A stretch of 30,575 nucleotides of DNA, from positions 1 to 30,575 of the IMG/VR virus record IMGVR_UViG_3300033146_004663; one strand, 5' to 3'. Below are positions 10,622 to 29,812 of the stretch, piece after piece (the first letter of the stretch is position 1; each line of letters opens with the position of its first letter). The notes under the pieces were generated by a model that saw only the letters and a program-made list of their open reading frames with translations, made no database searches and was not told the DNA's origin. This DNA comes from a virus. The translations under genes and the position numbers were made by a program.

Positions 10622-11071
10622 ATGTCTGCTTCAAATAATAATGCAGTAAGTTGGACTTGGAGAGCTATAATTGACGACCTTGAAGATGTTACTTTCAAGC
10701 TGAAAACTTGCCCTATCCCTGGTTTGGCGTGTAACAATATAAATCTATACTCAGCTGATGAATTTCTCTTGCCTACAAGTGGTGATAGGCTGGGATTCAA
10801 TCCATTTGAGATTGAGTTCTTCATAGATGAAACCTGGGAAAATTATATCAAGATTCATGAGTGGATCTTGAGGTATGCCGCCGATGGAGTAGTAGAAACC
10901 AAAGATATCACTATTCAACTTCTCAATAACGTCAATAAGCTGATTAGAACATTTTATATGCAAGACTGCTTTCCAATTAATATGAGTGACGTATCGATGA
11001 CTACAATCGATGATGATTCATATTTGTCTGTTACTACTGAGTTCGCATATTCCAAATGGTCTTTTGTTTGA
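10622..11071 (+). CDS. Tail-tube-fold protein (gp19-like), 3' end at IS607 junction
   Basis: 149 aa from the ATG at 10622 (AAAGGATTTGAT precedes it; an in-frame ATG at 10511 lies inside the ligase gene). The pattern is PIPGL, then TSGDRLGFNPFEIEFFID, then ETWENYIKIHEWI, then paired beta strands near the end. That resembles the tube fold of contractile-tail proteins (T4 gp19, gp54 or gp48 class), in which a strand pair and a helix link tube subunits. The C-terminus is SKWSFV followed by TGA supplied by the inserted element. Joining the far flank instead restores SKWSFVD and TAA. So the insertion cost one residue. Confidence 0.45.
   Translation: MSASNNNAVSWTWRAIIDDLEDVTFKLKTCPIPGLACNNINLYSADEFLLPTSGDRLGFNPFEIEFFIDETWENYIKIHEWILRYAADGVVETKDITIQLLNNVNKLIRTFYMQDCFPINMSDVSMTTIDDDSYLSVTTEFAYSKWSFV
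11057..11068 (+). repeat. 12-bp direct repeat, left side of IS607 element
   Basis: TGGTCTTTTGTT here is repeated exactly at 12803-12814 on the other side of the element. It includes the GG dinucleotide that IS607-type serine recombinases often use as crossover core. The exact crossover point within the 12 bp cannot be read from sequence. Confidence 0.75.
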
Positions 11072-11099
11072 GCAACAACTAAATCATTTAAATATATAC

Positions 11100-11672
11100 A
11101 TGATTAAGATACAATGGAAAACAGCGTACCAACTGGCAAGGGAAGAAGGAGTCCAACCTCAAACTATTAGACGTTGGATTTCTTCAGGAAAATATGAACT
11201 TGTAAAACGAACCAAAGGCAATGATTACCGTGTCGGGTTTGAGGTTAATTGCACTAATATCATATATGCCCGTGTTTCGTCTTCAAAACAAGTTCAATCA
11301 CTTGAGAATCAATTAAAGATTTTAAGAAAGGAGGTACCTGATCATGAAGAAATCAAAGACATTGGTTCTGGCTTCAACTTTAAACGAAAAGGCTTTAAAA
11401 CCCTTCTGGAACGAGTCTTGCAGGGAGACAAGCTCAGAATTATGGTTACCCACCCAGACCGGTTTACAAGATCAGGATATGAATTCATTAAATGGATCAT
11501 TGAATCATCTGGAAGTTCAATCCAATCATTGGATGACGCAGATAATGATGAAGAACAATTCGACACCTCTACCCTCATATCTTTTGTCACCTGCTTCTGT
11601 TCGTCCTTTCATGGAAAAAGGGGTGCCAGAGTTAAGGCAAGTAATAACCAAAAAGATCAGGATCATTCCTGA
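11100..11672 (+). CDS. tnpA: IS607 transposase TnpA (serine recombinase)
   Basis: 190 aa from the ATG at 11100, although its ribosome binding site is weak. It cuts and rejoins the element ends by a covalent serine link. Residues 6-45 form a MerR-type helix-turn-helix (KTAYQLAREEGVQPQTIRRW). The resolvase-like catalytic domain starts at about 54 with IIYARVSSSKQ, where Ser60 is the expected nucleophile, and continues with SLENQLKILRKE, DIGSGFNFKRKGF and VTHPDRFTRSG. It ends in a FHGKRGARVK stretch typical of the family. Length is usual. It overlaps tnpB by 62 bases in another frame. The protein looks intact. Confidence 0.9.
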   Translation: MIKIQWKTAYQLAREEGVQPQTIRRWISSGKYELVKRTKGNDYRVGFEVNCTNIIYARVSSSKQVQSLENQLKILRKEVPDHEEIKDIGSGFNFKRKGFKTLLERVLQGDKLRIMVTHPDRFTRSGYEFIKWIIESSGSSIQSLDDADNDEEQFDTSTLISFVTCFCSSFHGKRGARVKASNNQKDQDHS

Positions 11673-12744
11673 GAACGAAGAAATATACACGGCTGCATGT
11701 GACTTGGCCAGGGCCTCTTACAATATGTGCATATCTGCATATATCAATTACAAAGAGGATGTGAGAACTGACCCTGAGATTAGGCATGATGTTACAGCGT
11801 CTTGTAAAGATTGGCAATTAGTAATCGCTCATATTACCGATGGCTCTGCCTACAACGCTAAAATAACCAAACAAAAAGTAATCAAAGAGAGAACCAAAGG
11901 CAAGAAATGTGGCTATCATTTCAAAACCAGAAAGGATAGCAGGCAAGGTTTTAATATCTCCAAGCTTCCAAAGAAATGGATTTACCCCCAAAAACTTGGC
12001 CCGGTTACATTCCTTGAAGAAATCCCTGAATATGCATTTGGTAGATCAGCAAGGGTCATCACAGAATATGGAGAATGGTACTTATGTTGTCAGGATGTCA
12101 TCATAATTCCCAAGATCAAAGCTCGAAAGCTCAGTGCTGTAGCCATTGATCCTGGTGTGAGAACATTTGCAACAACCTACTCTCCTGATACTGTTTGTGA
12201 ATATGGAGCAGACTATGCAAAGCAATTAAAGGTCATTCAGGTGGAGTTGGATCATGCAATTTCACAAAGAGCTTTGATCTTGAATCAAAAGAAGCAATAT
12301 AAGAATATGCAATGGTACCAAGACAAAATCAAGCATTGGACAAACACGATAAACAAGTGCAAGATTGATGCAAGAAATTTGATTGATAACATGCATAAGC
12401 AAATTGCAGCTCATTTAACTAAAAACTATGATGTGATTTTACTTCCAACATTTGAAGTTTCTAATATGGTTGACAAGCAAAGACGGTCAATCGGAAGAGA
12501 AACTGTTCGTGGAATGTTGGGCTTGAGTCATTTTAGGTTTAAGTGCATATTGAAATGGCATGCAAAGAAACGTGGGAAACTGGTTTTGGACGTGAATGAA
12601 AGTTATACATCCAAAACCAATAGTTTCACAGGCGAATTGATGGATATAGGTTCTAAGAAGCAATTTAAGCACGATGGACAGACATTTGATCGTGATATTA
12701 ATGCCGCAAAGAACATATTCATCAAACATATCAAAATAAAGTAG
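11611..12744 (+). CDS. tnpB: TnpB, RNA-guided nuclease with rearranged RuvC site
   Basis: 377 aa from the ATG at 11611, which gives the usual TnpB N-terminus (VITKKIRIIPENEEIY, then ARASYNMC). TnpB uses an RNA from the element's right end to cut DNA at sites where the element is absent, which favours its retention. RuvC-I Asp180 is in AVAIDPGVRTF. The usual RuvC-II Glu position is Pro279 (ILLPTFEVSNM), and a Glu appears 51 residues later (VNESYTS, Glu330). RuvC-III is FDRDINAAKNI (Asp360/Asp362). This shift is the arrangement reported for Fanzor-like proteins. The zinc finger that normally has two CxxC pairs has no cysteine here (KTNSFTGEL, then FKHDGQTFD). Confidence 0.88.
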   Translation: MEKGVPELRQVITKKIRIIPENEEIYTAACDLARASYNMCISAYINYKEDVRTDPEIRHDVTASCKDWQLVIAHITDGSAYNAKITKQKVIKERTKGKKCGYHFKTRKDSRQGFNISKLPKKWIYPQKLGPVTFLEEIPEYAFGRSARVITEYGEWYLCCQDVIIIPKIKARKLSAVAIDPGVRTFATTYSPDTVCEYGADYAKQLKVIQVELDHAISQRALILNQKKQYKNMQWYQDKIKHWTNTINKCKIDARNLIDNMHKQIAAHLTKNYDVILLPTFEVSNMVDKQRRSIGRETVRGMLGLSHFRFKCILKWHAKKRGKLVLDVNESYTSKTNSFTGELMDIGSKKQFKHDGQTFDRDINAAKNIFIKHIKIK

Positions 12745-13178: not shown

Positions 13179-13207
13179 TTGACAAATGGTGTATTTTGAG
13201 GTAATAT
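13179..13207 (+). promoter_or_regulatory. sigma70-type promoter of uvsY
   Basis: TTGACA at 13179-13184, 17-base spacer, TAATAT at 13202-13207, 35 bases before the ATG at 13242. The spacer is one arm of a long inverted repeat. Confidence 0.85.
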
Positions 13208-13226
13208 CACTCAAAATACACCATTT
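13184..13226. promoter_or_regulatory. 17-bp inverted repeat over the uvsY promoter (operator candidate)
   Basis: AAATGGTGTATTTTGAG (13184-13200) and CTCAAAATACACCATTT (13210-13226) are perfect complements. The nine bases between them hold the -10 box. Transcription would start in or near the right arm, so the left arm is not in this transcript and a terminator role is unlikely (no T tract follows). A repressor operator, or a cruciform that masks the promoter, fits better. Confidence 0.6.
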
Positions 13227-16321: not shown

Positions 16322-16397
16322 TTTGAGCAACACTGAATCATTTAAAAATATGAAAAATGAATTACCAACTGGTAAGGGAGTCCAACCTCAAACTATT
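16322..16397 (+). pseudogene. Vestige of an IS607 left end and tnpA start
   Basis: 76 bases align to the left end of the element at 11067-11168. Shared blocks, in order: TTTGAGCAAC, AATCATTTAAA, ATATG-like bases, TACCAACTGG then AAGGGA, and GTCCAACCTCAAACTATT. The copy lacks about 26 bases, including a 7-base loss (AAGAAGG) that breaks the tnpA frame. There is no tnpB or right end nearby. It lies 12 bases after the preceding gene. Confidence 0.8.
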
Positions 16398-19685: not shown

Positions 19686-19713
19686 ATTTCATATCCCCTT
19701 GGAGTTTTTAAAA

Positions 19714-19723
19714 CTATTTAAAG
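19714..19723 (-). promoter_or_regulatory. Candidate late promoter of the gp6 operon
   Basis: Read on the minus strand: CTTTAAATAG, the same ten bases as at 3155-3164, placed 28 bases before the gp6 ATG. It is analogous to T4 late TATAAATA. Inference from position and recurrence. Confidence 0.5.
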
Positions 19724-20255: not shown

Positions 20256-20609
20256 ATGAATTTTGACAAGTACATCTACCAAGAACCAACAATTGAAAAG
20301 CCTATTGAACTTTGTAAATGCTCAGAATGTGGCAAATATTGCCCAGATGCTAAATATTGCCCAGAATGTGGCCAGAATTTAGCCTATAGAATCAAAATTA
20401 GTAAAGAATGGATTGCAGCAAGGAATCAGCAGCGTTGTGATCAGACAGCACTCTCAGAGGCTTTCGCACAAGACGTCCTCAAAGAATCAGGTTTCCAGGA
20501 TCATCCCAAGGCCAGAGAAATTTTTCTATACGCTTGGGATGGGTCAGGTGGATATGCTTCATGCTTTGAAACTCTTGAAGAACTCTATGACCTGTTCATG
20601 GTGGAGTAG
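20256..20609 (+). CDS. Zinc-ribbon protein with acidic C-terminal domain
   Basis: 117 aa from the ATG at 20256 (GGAGATTAGA precedes it), one base after the previous stop. Residues 20-40 hold two CxxC pairs (CKCSECGKYCPDAKYCPECG), a double zinc-ribbon. A helical domain follows: IAARNQQRCDQTALSEAF, then REIFLYAWDGSGGYASCFETLEELYDLF. The last part resembles small host- or RNA polymerase-binding phage proteins in length and charge only. Unknown function. The unit ends at the hairpin starting at 20646. Confidence 0.6.
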   Translation: MNFDKYIYQEPTIEKPIELCKCSECGKYCPDAKYCPECGQNLAYRIKISKEWIAARNQQRCDQTALSEAFAQDVLKESGFQDHPKAREIFLYAWDGSGGYASCFETLEELYDLFMVE

Positions 20610-20645: not shown

Positions 20646-20697
20646 ACTACGAAATTTGTAAAATTGATAGTAATTAAATGCGAATTTCGTAGTCTTT
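20646..20697 (+). terminator. Hairpin with T tract, probable terminator
   Basis: ACTACGAAATT (20646-20656) pairs with AATTTCGTAGT (20683-20693) around a 26-base loop, then CTTTT. It is 36 bases past the end of the three-gene unit. The stem also belongs to the repeated CTACGAAATT set of the adjacent repeat module, so it may have another role. Confidence 0.45.
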
Positions 20698-20712
20698 TAA
20701 GAAAACTACAGA

Positions 20713-20781
20713 AAATTCTCAGACTCAAACCCATGAAAATAGATGTAGGAATGTAATGATTTCAACCACTTGACTTTTTTG
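20713..20781. repeat. 69-bp direct repeat, copy A
   Basis: 66 of 69 bases match copy B at 20947-21015, with three transitions as the only changes. Copy A is bounded by ACTACAG-AAAATT on the left and GCGAATTTCGTAG on the right, forms of the same short element that makes the hairpin at 20646. It has no start codon of its own on either strand. It lies in a 421-base region (20610-21030) that has no credible gene. Confidence 0.9.
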
Positions 20782-20879
20782 CGAATTTCGTAGAATATAA
20801 GGAATTATGGGTAATTAAGAGGTAATTCAAAAGATTGGTCATCAATAATCTTCATTGGGCAATTGTTCATAGTAATGAA

Positions 20880-20926
20880 TTGAGGAAAACCTCAAAATAG
20901 ATAGGCTAAATTGAGGGAAACCTCAA
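20880..20926. repeat. Two near-identical 16-bp palindromes
   Basis: TTGAGGAAAACCTCAA (20880-20895) and TTGAGGGAAACCTCAA (20911-20926), 15 bases apart, each a 6-bp stem with a four-base loop. Further half copies GAGGTTTTC follow copy B at 21016 and 21035. They could be protein-binding sites or weak bidirectional terminators for the converging transcripts. Confidence 0.8.
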
Positions 20927-20946
20927 TACACCTGGATGCAATCACT

Positions 20947-21015
20947 AAATTCTCAGACTCAAACCCATGAAAATAGATATAAGAATGTAATGATTTCAGC
21001 CACTTGACTTTTTTG
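20947..21015. repeat. 69-bp direct repeat, copy B
   Basis: Copy of 20713-20781 with three transitions. On the minus strand the repeat reads as KKVKWLKSLHSYIYFHGFE-like codons in both copies, and all three differences are synonymous in that frame. Copy B is flanked by the TTGAGG/CCTCAA palindromes rather than the CTACGAAATT set. Confidence 0.9.
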
Positions 21016-21030
21016 AGGTTTTCCGCAATT

Positions 21031-21501
21031 CTATGAGGTTTTCTTTCTTGAATTATTCCAAGCAACAAATCCAAATGACCATAGGGCTGAATGAGCTATA
21101 TGAGAAATAGTCTTCATTCCAGTAGTTTCGATGACGATGTTTTTGAAGATAGTATCTAAAGACTTCTGATCCATCTCAATGAAAACCAAGTCTCCATTTG
21201 TTAGGATGATATTCAAACCTCCATATTGATATCCATAGTCATGAATGATTGAAGCAATCAATGCAGTTCCAACTGGATTCATCAAATTATGGAAGATTTT
21301 AGGTACCGAAGCTGCATTGAATTCAAATCCCCGATGAATGAACATAGTGATATTATTTGCATCCGTATAGGTCCAATCCTCTTCTAACTTCCATATGCGA
21401 TTGTAATTTGCCCAGACCTTGATCTTCTTCCACCAGCTCATATTCTTGGTATTCATTGGAATTGGTCTCAAGATAGGCATATTTTCGATATTCATTTCCA
21501 T
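21031..21501 (-). CDS. DUF1353-like phage protein
   Basis: 156 aa, ATG at 21501 behind AAAGGAGATTATC. The core IHRGFEFNAASVPKIFHNLM followed by GTALIASIIHDYGYQ matches the DUF1353 pattern (G-F-x-x-x-x-A-S-V-P-x-x-F ... A-x-x-x-H-D-x-x-Y), a phage family of unknown biochemistry with a possible hydrolase-like HD pair. Last gene of the gp48-gp13 operon. Its final codons and stop lie in a GAAAACCTC element of the adjoining repeat module, so the 3' end may have been reshaped. Confidence 0.6.
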   Translation of the reverse strand: MEMNIENMPILRPIPMNTKNMSWWKKIKVWANYNRIWKLEEDWTYTDANNITMFIHRGFEFNAASVPKIFHNLMNPVGTALIASIIHDYGYQYGGLNIILTNGDLVFIEMDQKSLDTIFKNIVIETTGMKTISHIAHSALWSFGFVAWNNSRKKTS

Positions 21502-24475: not shown

Positions 24476-24503
24476 CTTTAAATATCTTTAAACATATTTA
24501 AAG
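24476..24503. promoter_or_regulatory. Divergent late promoter pair (10-bp inverted repeat)
   Basis: CTTTAAATAT (24476-24485) and ATATTTAAAG (24494-24503) are perfect complements eight bases apart. Each arm is a TTTAAATA box facing one of the two late operons that start at 24462 (minus) and 24534 (plus). No TTGACA is near. Late promoter role is inferred from T4 TATAAATA. Confidence 0.55.
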
Positions 24504-24533
24504 AAATTTTAATTTCAATTTAAGGAGGCATAC

Positions 24534-27693: not shown

Positions 27694-28716
27694 ATGCCCG
27701 TATATACAATACCACCAAGGATATCAAGTGGAAGTACACCACCACCTGTTACACCACCTACAAGCGTGGTTGATAGTGATATGACAGGAGTAGTGGGTAT
27801 CATCTATGATATCACTGGTTTAACAGCTCCAAGAACATTTACACTACCTGATGCAACATCAATTGGCGATACTATCACAATTACCAATACAGATGGATCA
27901 TTCGATGCTTTTGATTTGACTGTTGATGTTATTCATGCTGGTACAGTCAATGAAAAGTCTTCTATTGTCGTCAATAGAGGATTCGCTGAAATTGAATTTA
28001 AAGCAATTTCAACTGGAGCAGGATCACAGTGGTCTGCTTTGGGTGATATTACAGTAGGTGACGTTACTATCCCGGATAAAGGAAGTACAGCAACTGAAAT
28101 TGGTTTTATAGGTTCTCTTACCGATACATTGATCACTAATGGTGCATCACGAACTAATATATGTTTAATGATTTTACACAATACCAATACAGTCGTAGAA
28201 ACATTTAGTCTATATAAAGTTCCTCCAGCCGGTTCACCCACTAATGCAAATAAATTTTTATCTATGCCATTAGAACCTAATGAGACCATTGTACTGGGTA
28301 CTGATATGTTGCCTACATTAGAAAATTCAGGTGATATGTTAAGTATAATCGTATCCACTATTAATATTTTCACGGTTCAGGTTTATGTGAATGGTGAAAG
28401 TGTTGAGACATTTGACACCCTATTGGATATGACTGCTTATGCTGCCGGAACTCATGATATATTATCAGGTGGTGCTAAAAATTGGTTAAAAGGTTCTATT
28501 ACCAATGTTGCCGCAGTGGATAATACAATCACTCTGAATAAAACCGTACCTGCTGGGGCACCGTCGTCATCCAATCAGTTTCTTAATCTTGTGTTGACTC
28601 CCAATGAAACTTTATTTTTAGATTTCGATGATCCTGGCATCAAAATTGGAGCCACTGATTCAATTAAGATGACTTGCACACAATCGACTACCATGCAAAT
28701 GTATGGCACAATTTAA
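27694..28716 (+). CDS. Fibre/adhesin paralogue 1
   Basis: 340 aa, ATG at 27694 behind AAGGAGTTTAAA, 10 bases after the previous gene. N-terminus MPVYTIPPRISSG, a Pro-rich spacer, then one TITLP-type beta domain (about 27-125), then two copies of the HNT-x-x-F-x-L-x-K-V domain (about 145-235 and 240-340). The first domain is almost the same DNA as in the gene at 28802. A terminator follows. Receptor binding or capsid/tail decoration is the likely role. Confidence 0.65.
   Translation: MPVYTIPPRISSGSTPPPVTPPTSVVDSDMTGVVGIIYDITGLTAPRTFTLPDATSIGDTITITNTDGSFDAFDLTVDVIHAGTVNEKSSIVVNRGFAEIEFKAISTGAGSQWSALGDITVGDVTIPDKGSTATEIGFIGSLTDTLITNGASRTNICLMILHNTNTVVETFSLYKVPPAGSPTNANKFLSMPLEPNETIVLGTDMLPTLENSGDMLSIIVSTINIFTVQVYVNGESVETFDTLLDMTAYAAGTHDILSGGAKNWLKGSITNVAAVDNTITLNKTVPAGAPSSSNQFLNLVLTPNETLFLDFDDPGIKIGATDSIKMTCTQSTTMQMYGTI
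27751..28047 (+). repeat. 297-bp direct repeat, copy 1 (fibre domain)
   Basis: Aligns without gaps to 28847-29143 at an offset of 1096. The first 68 bases are identical, and differences accumulate toward the 3' end. It covers the N-terminal beta domain of the two paralogues. Confidence 0.9.
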
Positions 28717-28801: not shown

Positions 28802-29812
28802 ATGGGCTTAACAATTATGCCTCCAAGGATATCAACTGTTGTAGTCACACCACCTACAAGCGTGGTTGATAGTGATATGACAGGAGTAGTGGGTATCATC
28901 TATGATATCACTGGATTAACAGCGGCAAGGACATTTACGCTACCTGATGCAGTTGCAATTGGTGATACTATCACAATTACCAATTCAGATGGATCATTTG
29001 ATGCTTTTGATTTGACTGTTGATGTAATCAATGCAGGGACAGTAAACAAAAAAGCTAATATTACACTTTCAAGAGGCTTTGCTGAAATTGAATTTAAAGC
29101 AATTTCTACTGGTGCTGGTTCTCAGTGGTCTGCTTTAGGTGATGTTGATGTTGCATGTGACCCCCCTTTAGGAGAAGTTGGTTCAGATATTGCAATAGCT
29201 GGCAGTGCTACAAATCTATTATATACCAACGGCACTGGGTCTAACGTATGCAGTCTATTAATCCTACATAATACTGATATACTTGATGTGTCATTTGATT
29301 TACACAAAGTCTTATCAGGTGATTCCCCAACTGTAGGCAATAAATTTATAAGTGCAACACTATCGCCAGGAGAAACCATTATTTTAGATGCAGAAAATTT
29401 ACCTGTGTTTGAAAATAGTGGTGACATGTTAAATTTGGCAGTCAGTACAGTTGGTAAGATCACAGCTCAGTTGTATATGAACGGTGAAACACAAAATTTA
29501 ACAGATATGGAAATCTTGAAAGAGATTACCACGTATGCAGCAGGTAGTAATGTTATCCTTAATGGGGCTATTCAAAGTTGGCTATATGGAACTATCACGA
29601 ATACTGCGGCGGTAGCTAACACAGTACAAATCTTTAAAATGGTTCCAGCTGGGGCAACTTCATTATCAAATAGGTTCATTAAAGTTGATTTAGCTATTGG
29701 TGAAACATTGACCTTTAGTCTACACCCGCCAGGTATTCACTTAAGTGCTGCTGATTCAGTTGTCGTTGAATCTACTGACAATATTACAGTCCAATTTTAC
29801 GGGAGAAAATAA
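28802..29812 (+). CDS. Fibre/adhesin paralogue 2
   Basis: 336 aa from the ATG at 28802 (ATGGAGAATATAT before it; MGLTIMPPRIS parallels the N-terminus of paralogue 1). The upstream ATG at 28781 has no such site. Same order of domains as paralogue 1. The two C-terminal domains are only moderately alike between the proteins (LLILHNTDILDVSFDLHKV versus LMILHNTNTVVETFSLYKV), while the first domain is nearly identical. The stop overlaps the next start (TAATG). Confidence 0.65.
   Translation: MGLTIMPPRISTVVVTPPTSVVDSDMTGVVGIIYDITGLTAARTFTLPDAVAIGDTITITNSDGSFDAFDLTVDVINAGTVNKKANITLSRGFAEIEFKAISTGAGSQWSALGDVDVACDPPLGEVGSDIAIAGSATNLLYTNGTGSNVCSLLILHNTDILDVSFDLHKVLSGDSPTVGNKFISATLSPGETIILDAENLPVFENSGDMLNLAVSTVGKITAQLYMNGETQNLTDMEILKEITTYAAGSNVILNGAIQSWLYGTITNTAAVANTVQIFKMVPAGATSLSNRFIKVDLAIGETLTFSLHPPGIHLSAADSVVVESTDNITVQFYGRK
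28847..29143 (+). repeat. 297-bp direct repeat, copy 2 (fibre domain)
   Basis: Partner of 27751-28047. A homologous block of this size next to uvsX-type recombination genes could allow deletion or exchange of the fibre gene between the copies. Confidence 0.9.

What the first reader, a model, noticed from the sequence alone, without database searches (positions are those of the whole stretch)
20646..21045. Two 69-bp repeats, each wrapped in its own private set of palindromes
Copies A and B (66/69 identical) share the same core but differ in flanks. Around A all short elements are CTACGAAATT/GCGAATTTCGTAG; around B all are GAGGAAAACCTC types (including two 16-bp palindromes). A constant core with copy-specific matched palindromes on both sides is not explained by simple duplication. 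It could be a small mobile module that pairs with or copies its target, a replication origin or partition-type site, or a set of regulator sites.
Basis: seen in the sequence. Interest (0 to 1): 0.7.

Follow-up and report, generated by a model that had tools for sequence, protein, structure and literature searches.

The report
Twin phage operator arrays, different specificities
In a T4-like phage, a stretch of about 400 bases between two genes holds two copies of a control-site-like module with the same layout and the same 69-base core, but each copy carries its own set of palindromic (probably protein-binding) sites, suggesting a duplicated DNA control element whose copies came to bind different proteins; what it controls is unknown.

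Summary
Two 69-bp cores (20713-20781 and 20947-21015, 66/69 identical, 234 bp apart) are each flanked by copy-specific palindromes. Sites 1, 2 and 3 of copy B lie 233.5, 233.5 and 234.5 bp from those of copy A, with internal spacings of 31 and 101 bp (A) and 31 and 102 bp (B). Sequence between the sites has mostly diverged, with no net change in length. All six sites are individually near-palindromic: TRCGAAWTTYGTA in A, TTGAGGNNNNCCTCAA in B. So this looks like one ancestral ~147-bp module, duplicated, with core and geometry kept and all sites of a copy changed together.

Best reading (about 0.45): two paralogous arrays of operator-like sites for dimeric DNA-binding proteins of different specificity, perhaps bridging across the core. 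No output is shown. A promoter at the core's edge is plausible only in A, an IHF site is not conserved, and neither binding protein is identified. The core was not found elsewhere. RNA hairpins, a mobile inverted-repeat element and a decayed coding duplication remain rivals. A 22-aa minus-strand frame is open in both copies with only synonymous differences.

The parts
20647..20793 (.). Unit A: site A1 - AAAATTGATAG - site A2 - core - site A3 (147 bp)
   Evidence: in-register alignment with unit B at lag 234
20648..20660 (.). Site A1, TACGAAATTTGTA, near-palindrome 5/6
20660..20670 (+). AAAATTGATAG, conserved in register with B (20894), outside the core
20679..20691 (.). Site A2, TGCGAATTTCGTA, near-palindrome 5/6
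20713..20781 (+). Core A, 69 bp
20770..20775 (+). TTGACT (-35-like) at the core's right end; possible -10 in A only (TAGAAT at 15 bp or TATAAG at 20 bp)
   Evidence: weak
20780..20792 (.). Site A3, TGCGAATTTCGTA, same 13-mer as A2
20880..21028 (.). Unit B: site B1 - AAAATAGATAG - site B2 - core - site B3
20880..20895 (.). Site B1, TTGAGGAAAACCTCAA, 6/6 arms
20894..20904 (+). AAAATAGATAG, counterpart of 20660
20911..20926 (.). Site B2, TTGAGGGAAACCTCAA, 6/6 arms
20947..21015 (+). Core B, 69 bp, 3 transitions from core A
21004..21009 (+). TTGACT in core B; no -10 better than 3/6 follows
21013..21028 (.). Site B3, TTGAGGTTTTCCGCAA, 5/6 arms
21033..21048 (.). Half-site B4, ATGAGGTTTTCTTTCT (3/6 arms), 20 bp from B3, inside the 3' end of the DUF1353 gene; may be chance
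20256..20609 (+). Neighbouring early-type gene (zinc-ribbon-like cysteines, phrog_10980), convergent to the DUF1353 gene
21031..21501 (-). Neighbouring DUF1353 gene (phrog_1158, annotated tail assembly chaperone)

Best explanation
A ~147-bp module of three operator-like palindromes (two left of the core 31 bp apart, one right of it about 101 bp further) was duplicated. The two copies now carry sites for two different dimeric DNA-binding proteins while keeping the same core and the same geometry. Inferred mechanism: a dimer (or tetramer) binds the left pair and the right site of its own unit and bridges them, looping or wrapping the shared core. That controls either access to a factor that reads the core or a promoter at the core's edge. 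Shown: the sites, their symmetry, their register and the conserved core. Inferred: protein binding, bridging and the regulatory output.
For: Every one of sites A1-A3 and B1-B3 is individually symmetric (5/6, 5/6, 5/6, 6/6, 6/6, 5/6), against a background of 0.6-0.8% of positions at 5/6 or better and 0.06% at 6/6. Site centres keep the same offsets in both units to within 0.5 bp of the core lag, while most sequence between them has diverged to chance identity without a net length change. Sites 1 and 2 are 31 bp apart, near three helical turns. Sequence is conserved in the core and AAAATnGATAG but not at the sites, which changed coherently within each unit. The core alone shows no RNA-structure signal on the + strand (z +1.3 in both copies) and little on the - strand (+0.4, -1.2), so DNA rather than RNA looks like its level of action. 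The pattern was unique in 1.5 Mb of related contigs.
Against: No binding protein is identified. The TTGACT at the core's edge has a plausible -10 only in A, at odd spacings of 15 or 20 bp; B has none, while the phage's other TTGACA sites mostly have TAGAAT/TAGGAT-type hexamers at 17 bp. The region lies between convergent genes, so a promoter here would drive antisense or non-coding RNA. 101-102 bp is about 9.6-9.7 helical turns, not a clean integer. With only two copies, 'conserved spacing' is one comparison. MAFFT also allows an alignment with two 2-base gaps.
Confidence: 0.45

Rival explanations
1. RNA-level element: sites 1 and 3 pair to close a ~147-nt hairpin in the 3' ends of the convergent transcripts (or in a small RNA), with site 2 as an alternative partner. 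It protects, terminates or processes the 3' ends.
For: Sites 1 and 3 form a 17-bp stem in A (two mismatches are G-U wobbles on the + strand) and a ~22/24-bp stem in B; z is -3.0 to -5.5 on the two strands. No intrinsic terminator was found in this convergent intergenic region, though other intergenic regions carry hairpin-plus-T sequences.
Against: Any set of palindromic sites of one type pairs with itself, so the stem is expected under the operator reading too. Site 2, the palindromy of single sites and the rigid spacing are not needed for a stem. The conserved core is not structured. No T-run follows the right arms.
Confidence: 0.2
2. Recombination or replication site: the palindromes are arm or iteron-type sites for a recombinase or initiator and the core is the exchange or initiation region, duplicated with altered specificity.
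For: Constant core with variable flanking binding sites is the general layout of such sites (established knowledge). The region sits at the end of an inserted early-gene block within late genes.
Against: No matching recombinase or initiator was recognised in the record; the IS607-type recombinase at 11040-11672 has no copy of these sites near it. The core has no palindromic crossover centre. No other copy in the searched collections.
Confidence: 0.13
3. Mobile inverted-repeat element (MITE-like) present in two copies.
For: 17- and 24-bp inverted repeats enclose each unit.
Against: The terminal repeats differ completely between copies, whereas a MITE keeps its ends; no target-site duplication visible; no other copy in the record, phage or plasmid records, or by exact pattern in IMG/VR or GTDB contigs.
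Confidence: 0.07
4. Remnant of a duplicated protein-coding sequence on the minus strand; the palindromes are secondary.
For: Of six frames only one (minus strand) is open through the core in both copies, KKVKWLKSLHSYIYFHGFESEN, and all three differences are synonymous there (about 0.04 by chance for a frame named in advance).
Against: No start codon or length in A (stop codons on both sides); no relative in PHROGs, Pfam, phage or plasmid tblastn, or GTDB contigs by exact degenerate pattern. Does not explain in-register private palindromes or AAAATnGATAG.
Confidence: 0.08

Closest known systems
E. coli gal operator loop (GalR OE/OI, 113 bp apart, HU at the apex; PMC4693257)
   Same: Palindromic operators on both sides of a ~100-bp core that could be looped
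   Different: gal has one unit with promoters shown in the loop and a known repressor; here there are two units with different site types, no shown promoter, no known protein
Lambdoid OR/OL operator triplets (from knowledge, not tested)
   Same: Three or so operators per unit; specificity differs between related units
   Different: Lambda operators are 20-25 bp apart around divergent promoters next to the repressor gene; here spacing is 31/101 bp, between convergent genes
P1/P7 parS centromeres (from knowledge, not tested)
   Same: Shared layout with variant-specific boxes around a bend site
   Different: No conserved IHF site (1 mismatch in A, none in B), no ParB/ParA recognised in this record, lytic-type gene content
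Promoter-early stem-loop cassettes (PeSL) of T4-type phages (from knowledge; paper not in the library)
   Same: Repeated intergenic regulatory element in a T4-like genome
   Different: PeSL has a terminator-type stem-loop followed by an early promoter; here no terminator and no convincing promoter

Membership tests
Looped operator module (GalR/LacI-like control) | Two or more copies of one palindromic operator flanking a ~100-bp segment | tested here: met
   three symmetric sites per unit, 31 and 101/102 bp apart
Looped operator module (GalR/LacI-like control) | Promoter within or next to the loop | tested here: inconclusive
   TTGACT in both cores; possible -10 only in A; consensus scan finds no + strand promoter-like site in the region
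Looped operator module (GalR/LacI-like control) | Cognate dimeric/tetrameric DNA-binding protein | not testable with these tools
   record is a 30.6-kb fragment of the phage; protein unknown
Looped operator module (GalR/LacI-like control) | Conserved DNA-bending protein site (IHF/HU) in the loop | tested here: not met
   IHF consensus with 1 mismatch in A, none in B; background 0.54 such sites per 161 bp. HU has no strict consensus
MITE / inverted-repeat mobile element | Same terminal inverted repeats in all copies | tested here: not met
   A and B termini unrelated
MITE / inverted-repeat mobile element | Target-site duplication and dispersed copies | tested here: not met
   none seen; no other copy found
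T4-type PeSL cassette | Terminator-type stem-loop followed by an early promoter | tested here: not met
   0 terminator-like sites; no 17-bp-spaced -10
Curated RNA family | Match to an Rfam covariance model | tested here: not met
parS-type partition site | Conserved bend (IHF) site and partition genes nearby | tested here: not met
   IHF-like site absent in B; no partition gene recognised among the ORFs scanned, but the record is a fragment

The most novel reading that the evidence does not exclude
A T4-like phage carries a duplicated nucleoprotein module whose two copies keep one shared core and fixed geometry but have coherently switched all their binding sites to a second protein's specificity: a natural example of a multi-site control element rewired as a whole, possibly read by two paralogous phage regulators.
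Probability: 0.25. Interest if true: 0.7.

Novelty: new variant of a known kind. Interest (0 to 1): 0.45.

Why it matters
If confirmed, it would be a compact test case for how a multi-site DNA control element changes specificity without losing its geometry: two versions side by side in one molecule, sharing the part that does not depend on the binding protein. It would also point to undiscovered DNA-binding regulators in a T4-like phage, a group usually thought to use sigma appropriation and activators rather than operator arrays.

Tried and rejected
Other copies: none in the record, phages (only chance-level hits with E about 1), plasmids (a 36-bp hit in Paraclostridium covering part of core B, E 9e-3 and not shared as a unit, taken as chance), IMG/VR by three exact core patterns, GTDB contigs. 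Relatives by neighbouring genes: single-protein scans for DUF1353, gp6 and the zinc-ribbon gene found no close kin. Alignment-based scans gave 144 distant loci, none with the core (nhmmer) and none with the same grammar. Rfam: nothing; the two sub-threshold hits are eukaryotic families outside the units. tRNA: none. Peptide from the open minus frame: no relatives. Considered and dropped: diversity-generating repeat (the three differences run in both directions, G to A and A to G, and no reverse transcriptase was recognised); IS607 ends (no copy of the sites near the IS607-type genes); the Vibrio phage D506 tandem repeat upstream of gp6 is unrelated in sequence. The genome search does not draw relatives for a virus record. 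Literature searches on PeSL and parS returned nothing usable.

Full report
What is there. The record is a 30,575-base virus contig and the window is the whole of it. Its genes are those of a T4-like myovirus: gp6-type baseplate wedge, UvsX-like recombinase, baseplate tail tube cap. Its gp6 relatives in named phages stay under 60% identity; the best hit is 38% to Pseudomonas phage Cygsa01. The feature lies in a 421-bp gap between two convergent genes: a small plus-strand gene ending at 20609 and a minus-strand DUF1353 gene whose stop codon starts at 21031 on the plus-strand count.

Observation. Two 69-bp cores, 234 bp apart, differ at three positions. Each has its own palindromes: TRCGAAWTTYGTA around A, TTGAGGNNNNCCTCAA around B. 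Shared words within the flanks exceed all shuffles in A and equal the top of the shuffle range in B.

The new point: register. Sites 1, 2 and 3 of unit B sit 233.5, 233.5 and 234.5 bp from those of unit A, against a core lag of 234. Internal spacings are 31 and 101 bp (A) and 31 and 102 bp (B), with a possible half-site 20 bp beyond B3. Between sites most sequence has fallen to chance identity (about 5 of 20), yet no net length change has occurred; one short piece outside the core, AAAATnGATAG, is also kept. So the ancestor was probably the full ~147-bp unit, and the sites of one (or both) copies were later changed together. This corrects the statement that duplication does not explain the pattern: duplication explains the ancestry, and the coherent change of sites is what needs a function. 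A caveat is that MAFFT also offers an alignment with two 2-base gaps.

Why protein-binding sites. All six main sites are individually symmetric, which a pure site-1/site-3 stem does not require. Site 2, in register in both units, is also not required by a stem. Spacing is kept where sequence is not. The core has no RNA-structure signal on the + strand and little on the - strand. RNA pairing of sites 1 and 3 is strong on both strands, but any array of like palindromes would do that. I therefore prefer paired operator-like arrays, with bridging across the core as in the E. coli gal repressor loop, where operators 113 bp apart enclose two promoters with HU at the apex (PMC4693257). That is an analogy of layout, not membership.

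What is not supported. The core ends in TTGACT, but only A has a possible -10 (at 15 or 20 bp); the phage's other TTGACA sites mostly use TAGAAT/TAGGAT-type hexamers at 17 bp. An IHF-like sequence in A is broken by one of the three substitutions in B, and such sequences are common in this genome. No terminator is found in the gap. There is no sign of mobility: no other copy, no target duplication, and termini that differ between copies.

Loose end. The only frame open through both cores is on the minus strand, and all three differences are silent there. By chance that is about 0.04 for one frame named in advance, so it is a hint, not evidence of coding. No relative of the peptide was found.

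Verdict. A real and unusual arrangement, most likely a duplicated DNA-binding module whose copies differ in specificity; protein, output and phylogenetic distribution are unknown. The lack of any close relative in the searched collections is the main limit: two copies in one genome are all the comparative evidence available.

Noticed in passing
13179-13226: Promoter-like TTGACA...TAATAT whose -10 lies in the 9-bp loop of a perfect 17-bp inverted repeat (AAATGGTGTATTTTGAG / CTCAAAATACACCATTT), another operator-like design in this phage.
   Followed up: partly
11010-12744: IS607-type element: serine recombinase-like TnpA and TnpB with a Cas12f1-like TNB domain, inserted in a T4-like phage genome.
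   Followed up: partly
16366-16397: A 21-nt exact match to the IS607 tnpA coding sequence (GGAGTCCAACCTCAAACTATT) preceded by further similarity with a short gap, probably a decayed tnpA fragment.
   Followed up: partly
952, 4501, 8561 and 2746, 15530, 19731: Early promoters fall into two sequence classes, each with its own conserved spacer and downstream sequence (..CAAGTTAGAATCATTTCA versus ..ATCATGTNNTAGGATCA), suggesting more than one promoter-class regulator.
   Followed up: no
27748-28050 and 28844-29146: Neighbouring genes share 75- to 219-nt repeats at 88-89% identity, a recent gene duplication.
   Followed up: no
L007 5647-5704 and 5815-5872: Vibrio phage D506 has a 58-bp tandem element (98% identical, 168 bp apart) in the intergenic region upstream of gp6; unrelated in sequence to the finding.
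   Followed up: partly
about 19706-19722 (-) and 24480-24505 (-): TTTAAATA sequences upstream of the minus-strand late genes, resembling T4 late promoters.
   Followed up: no
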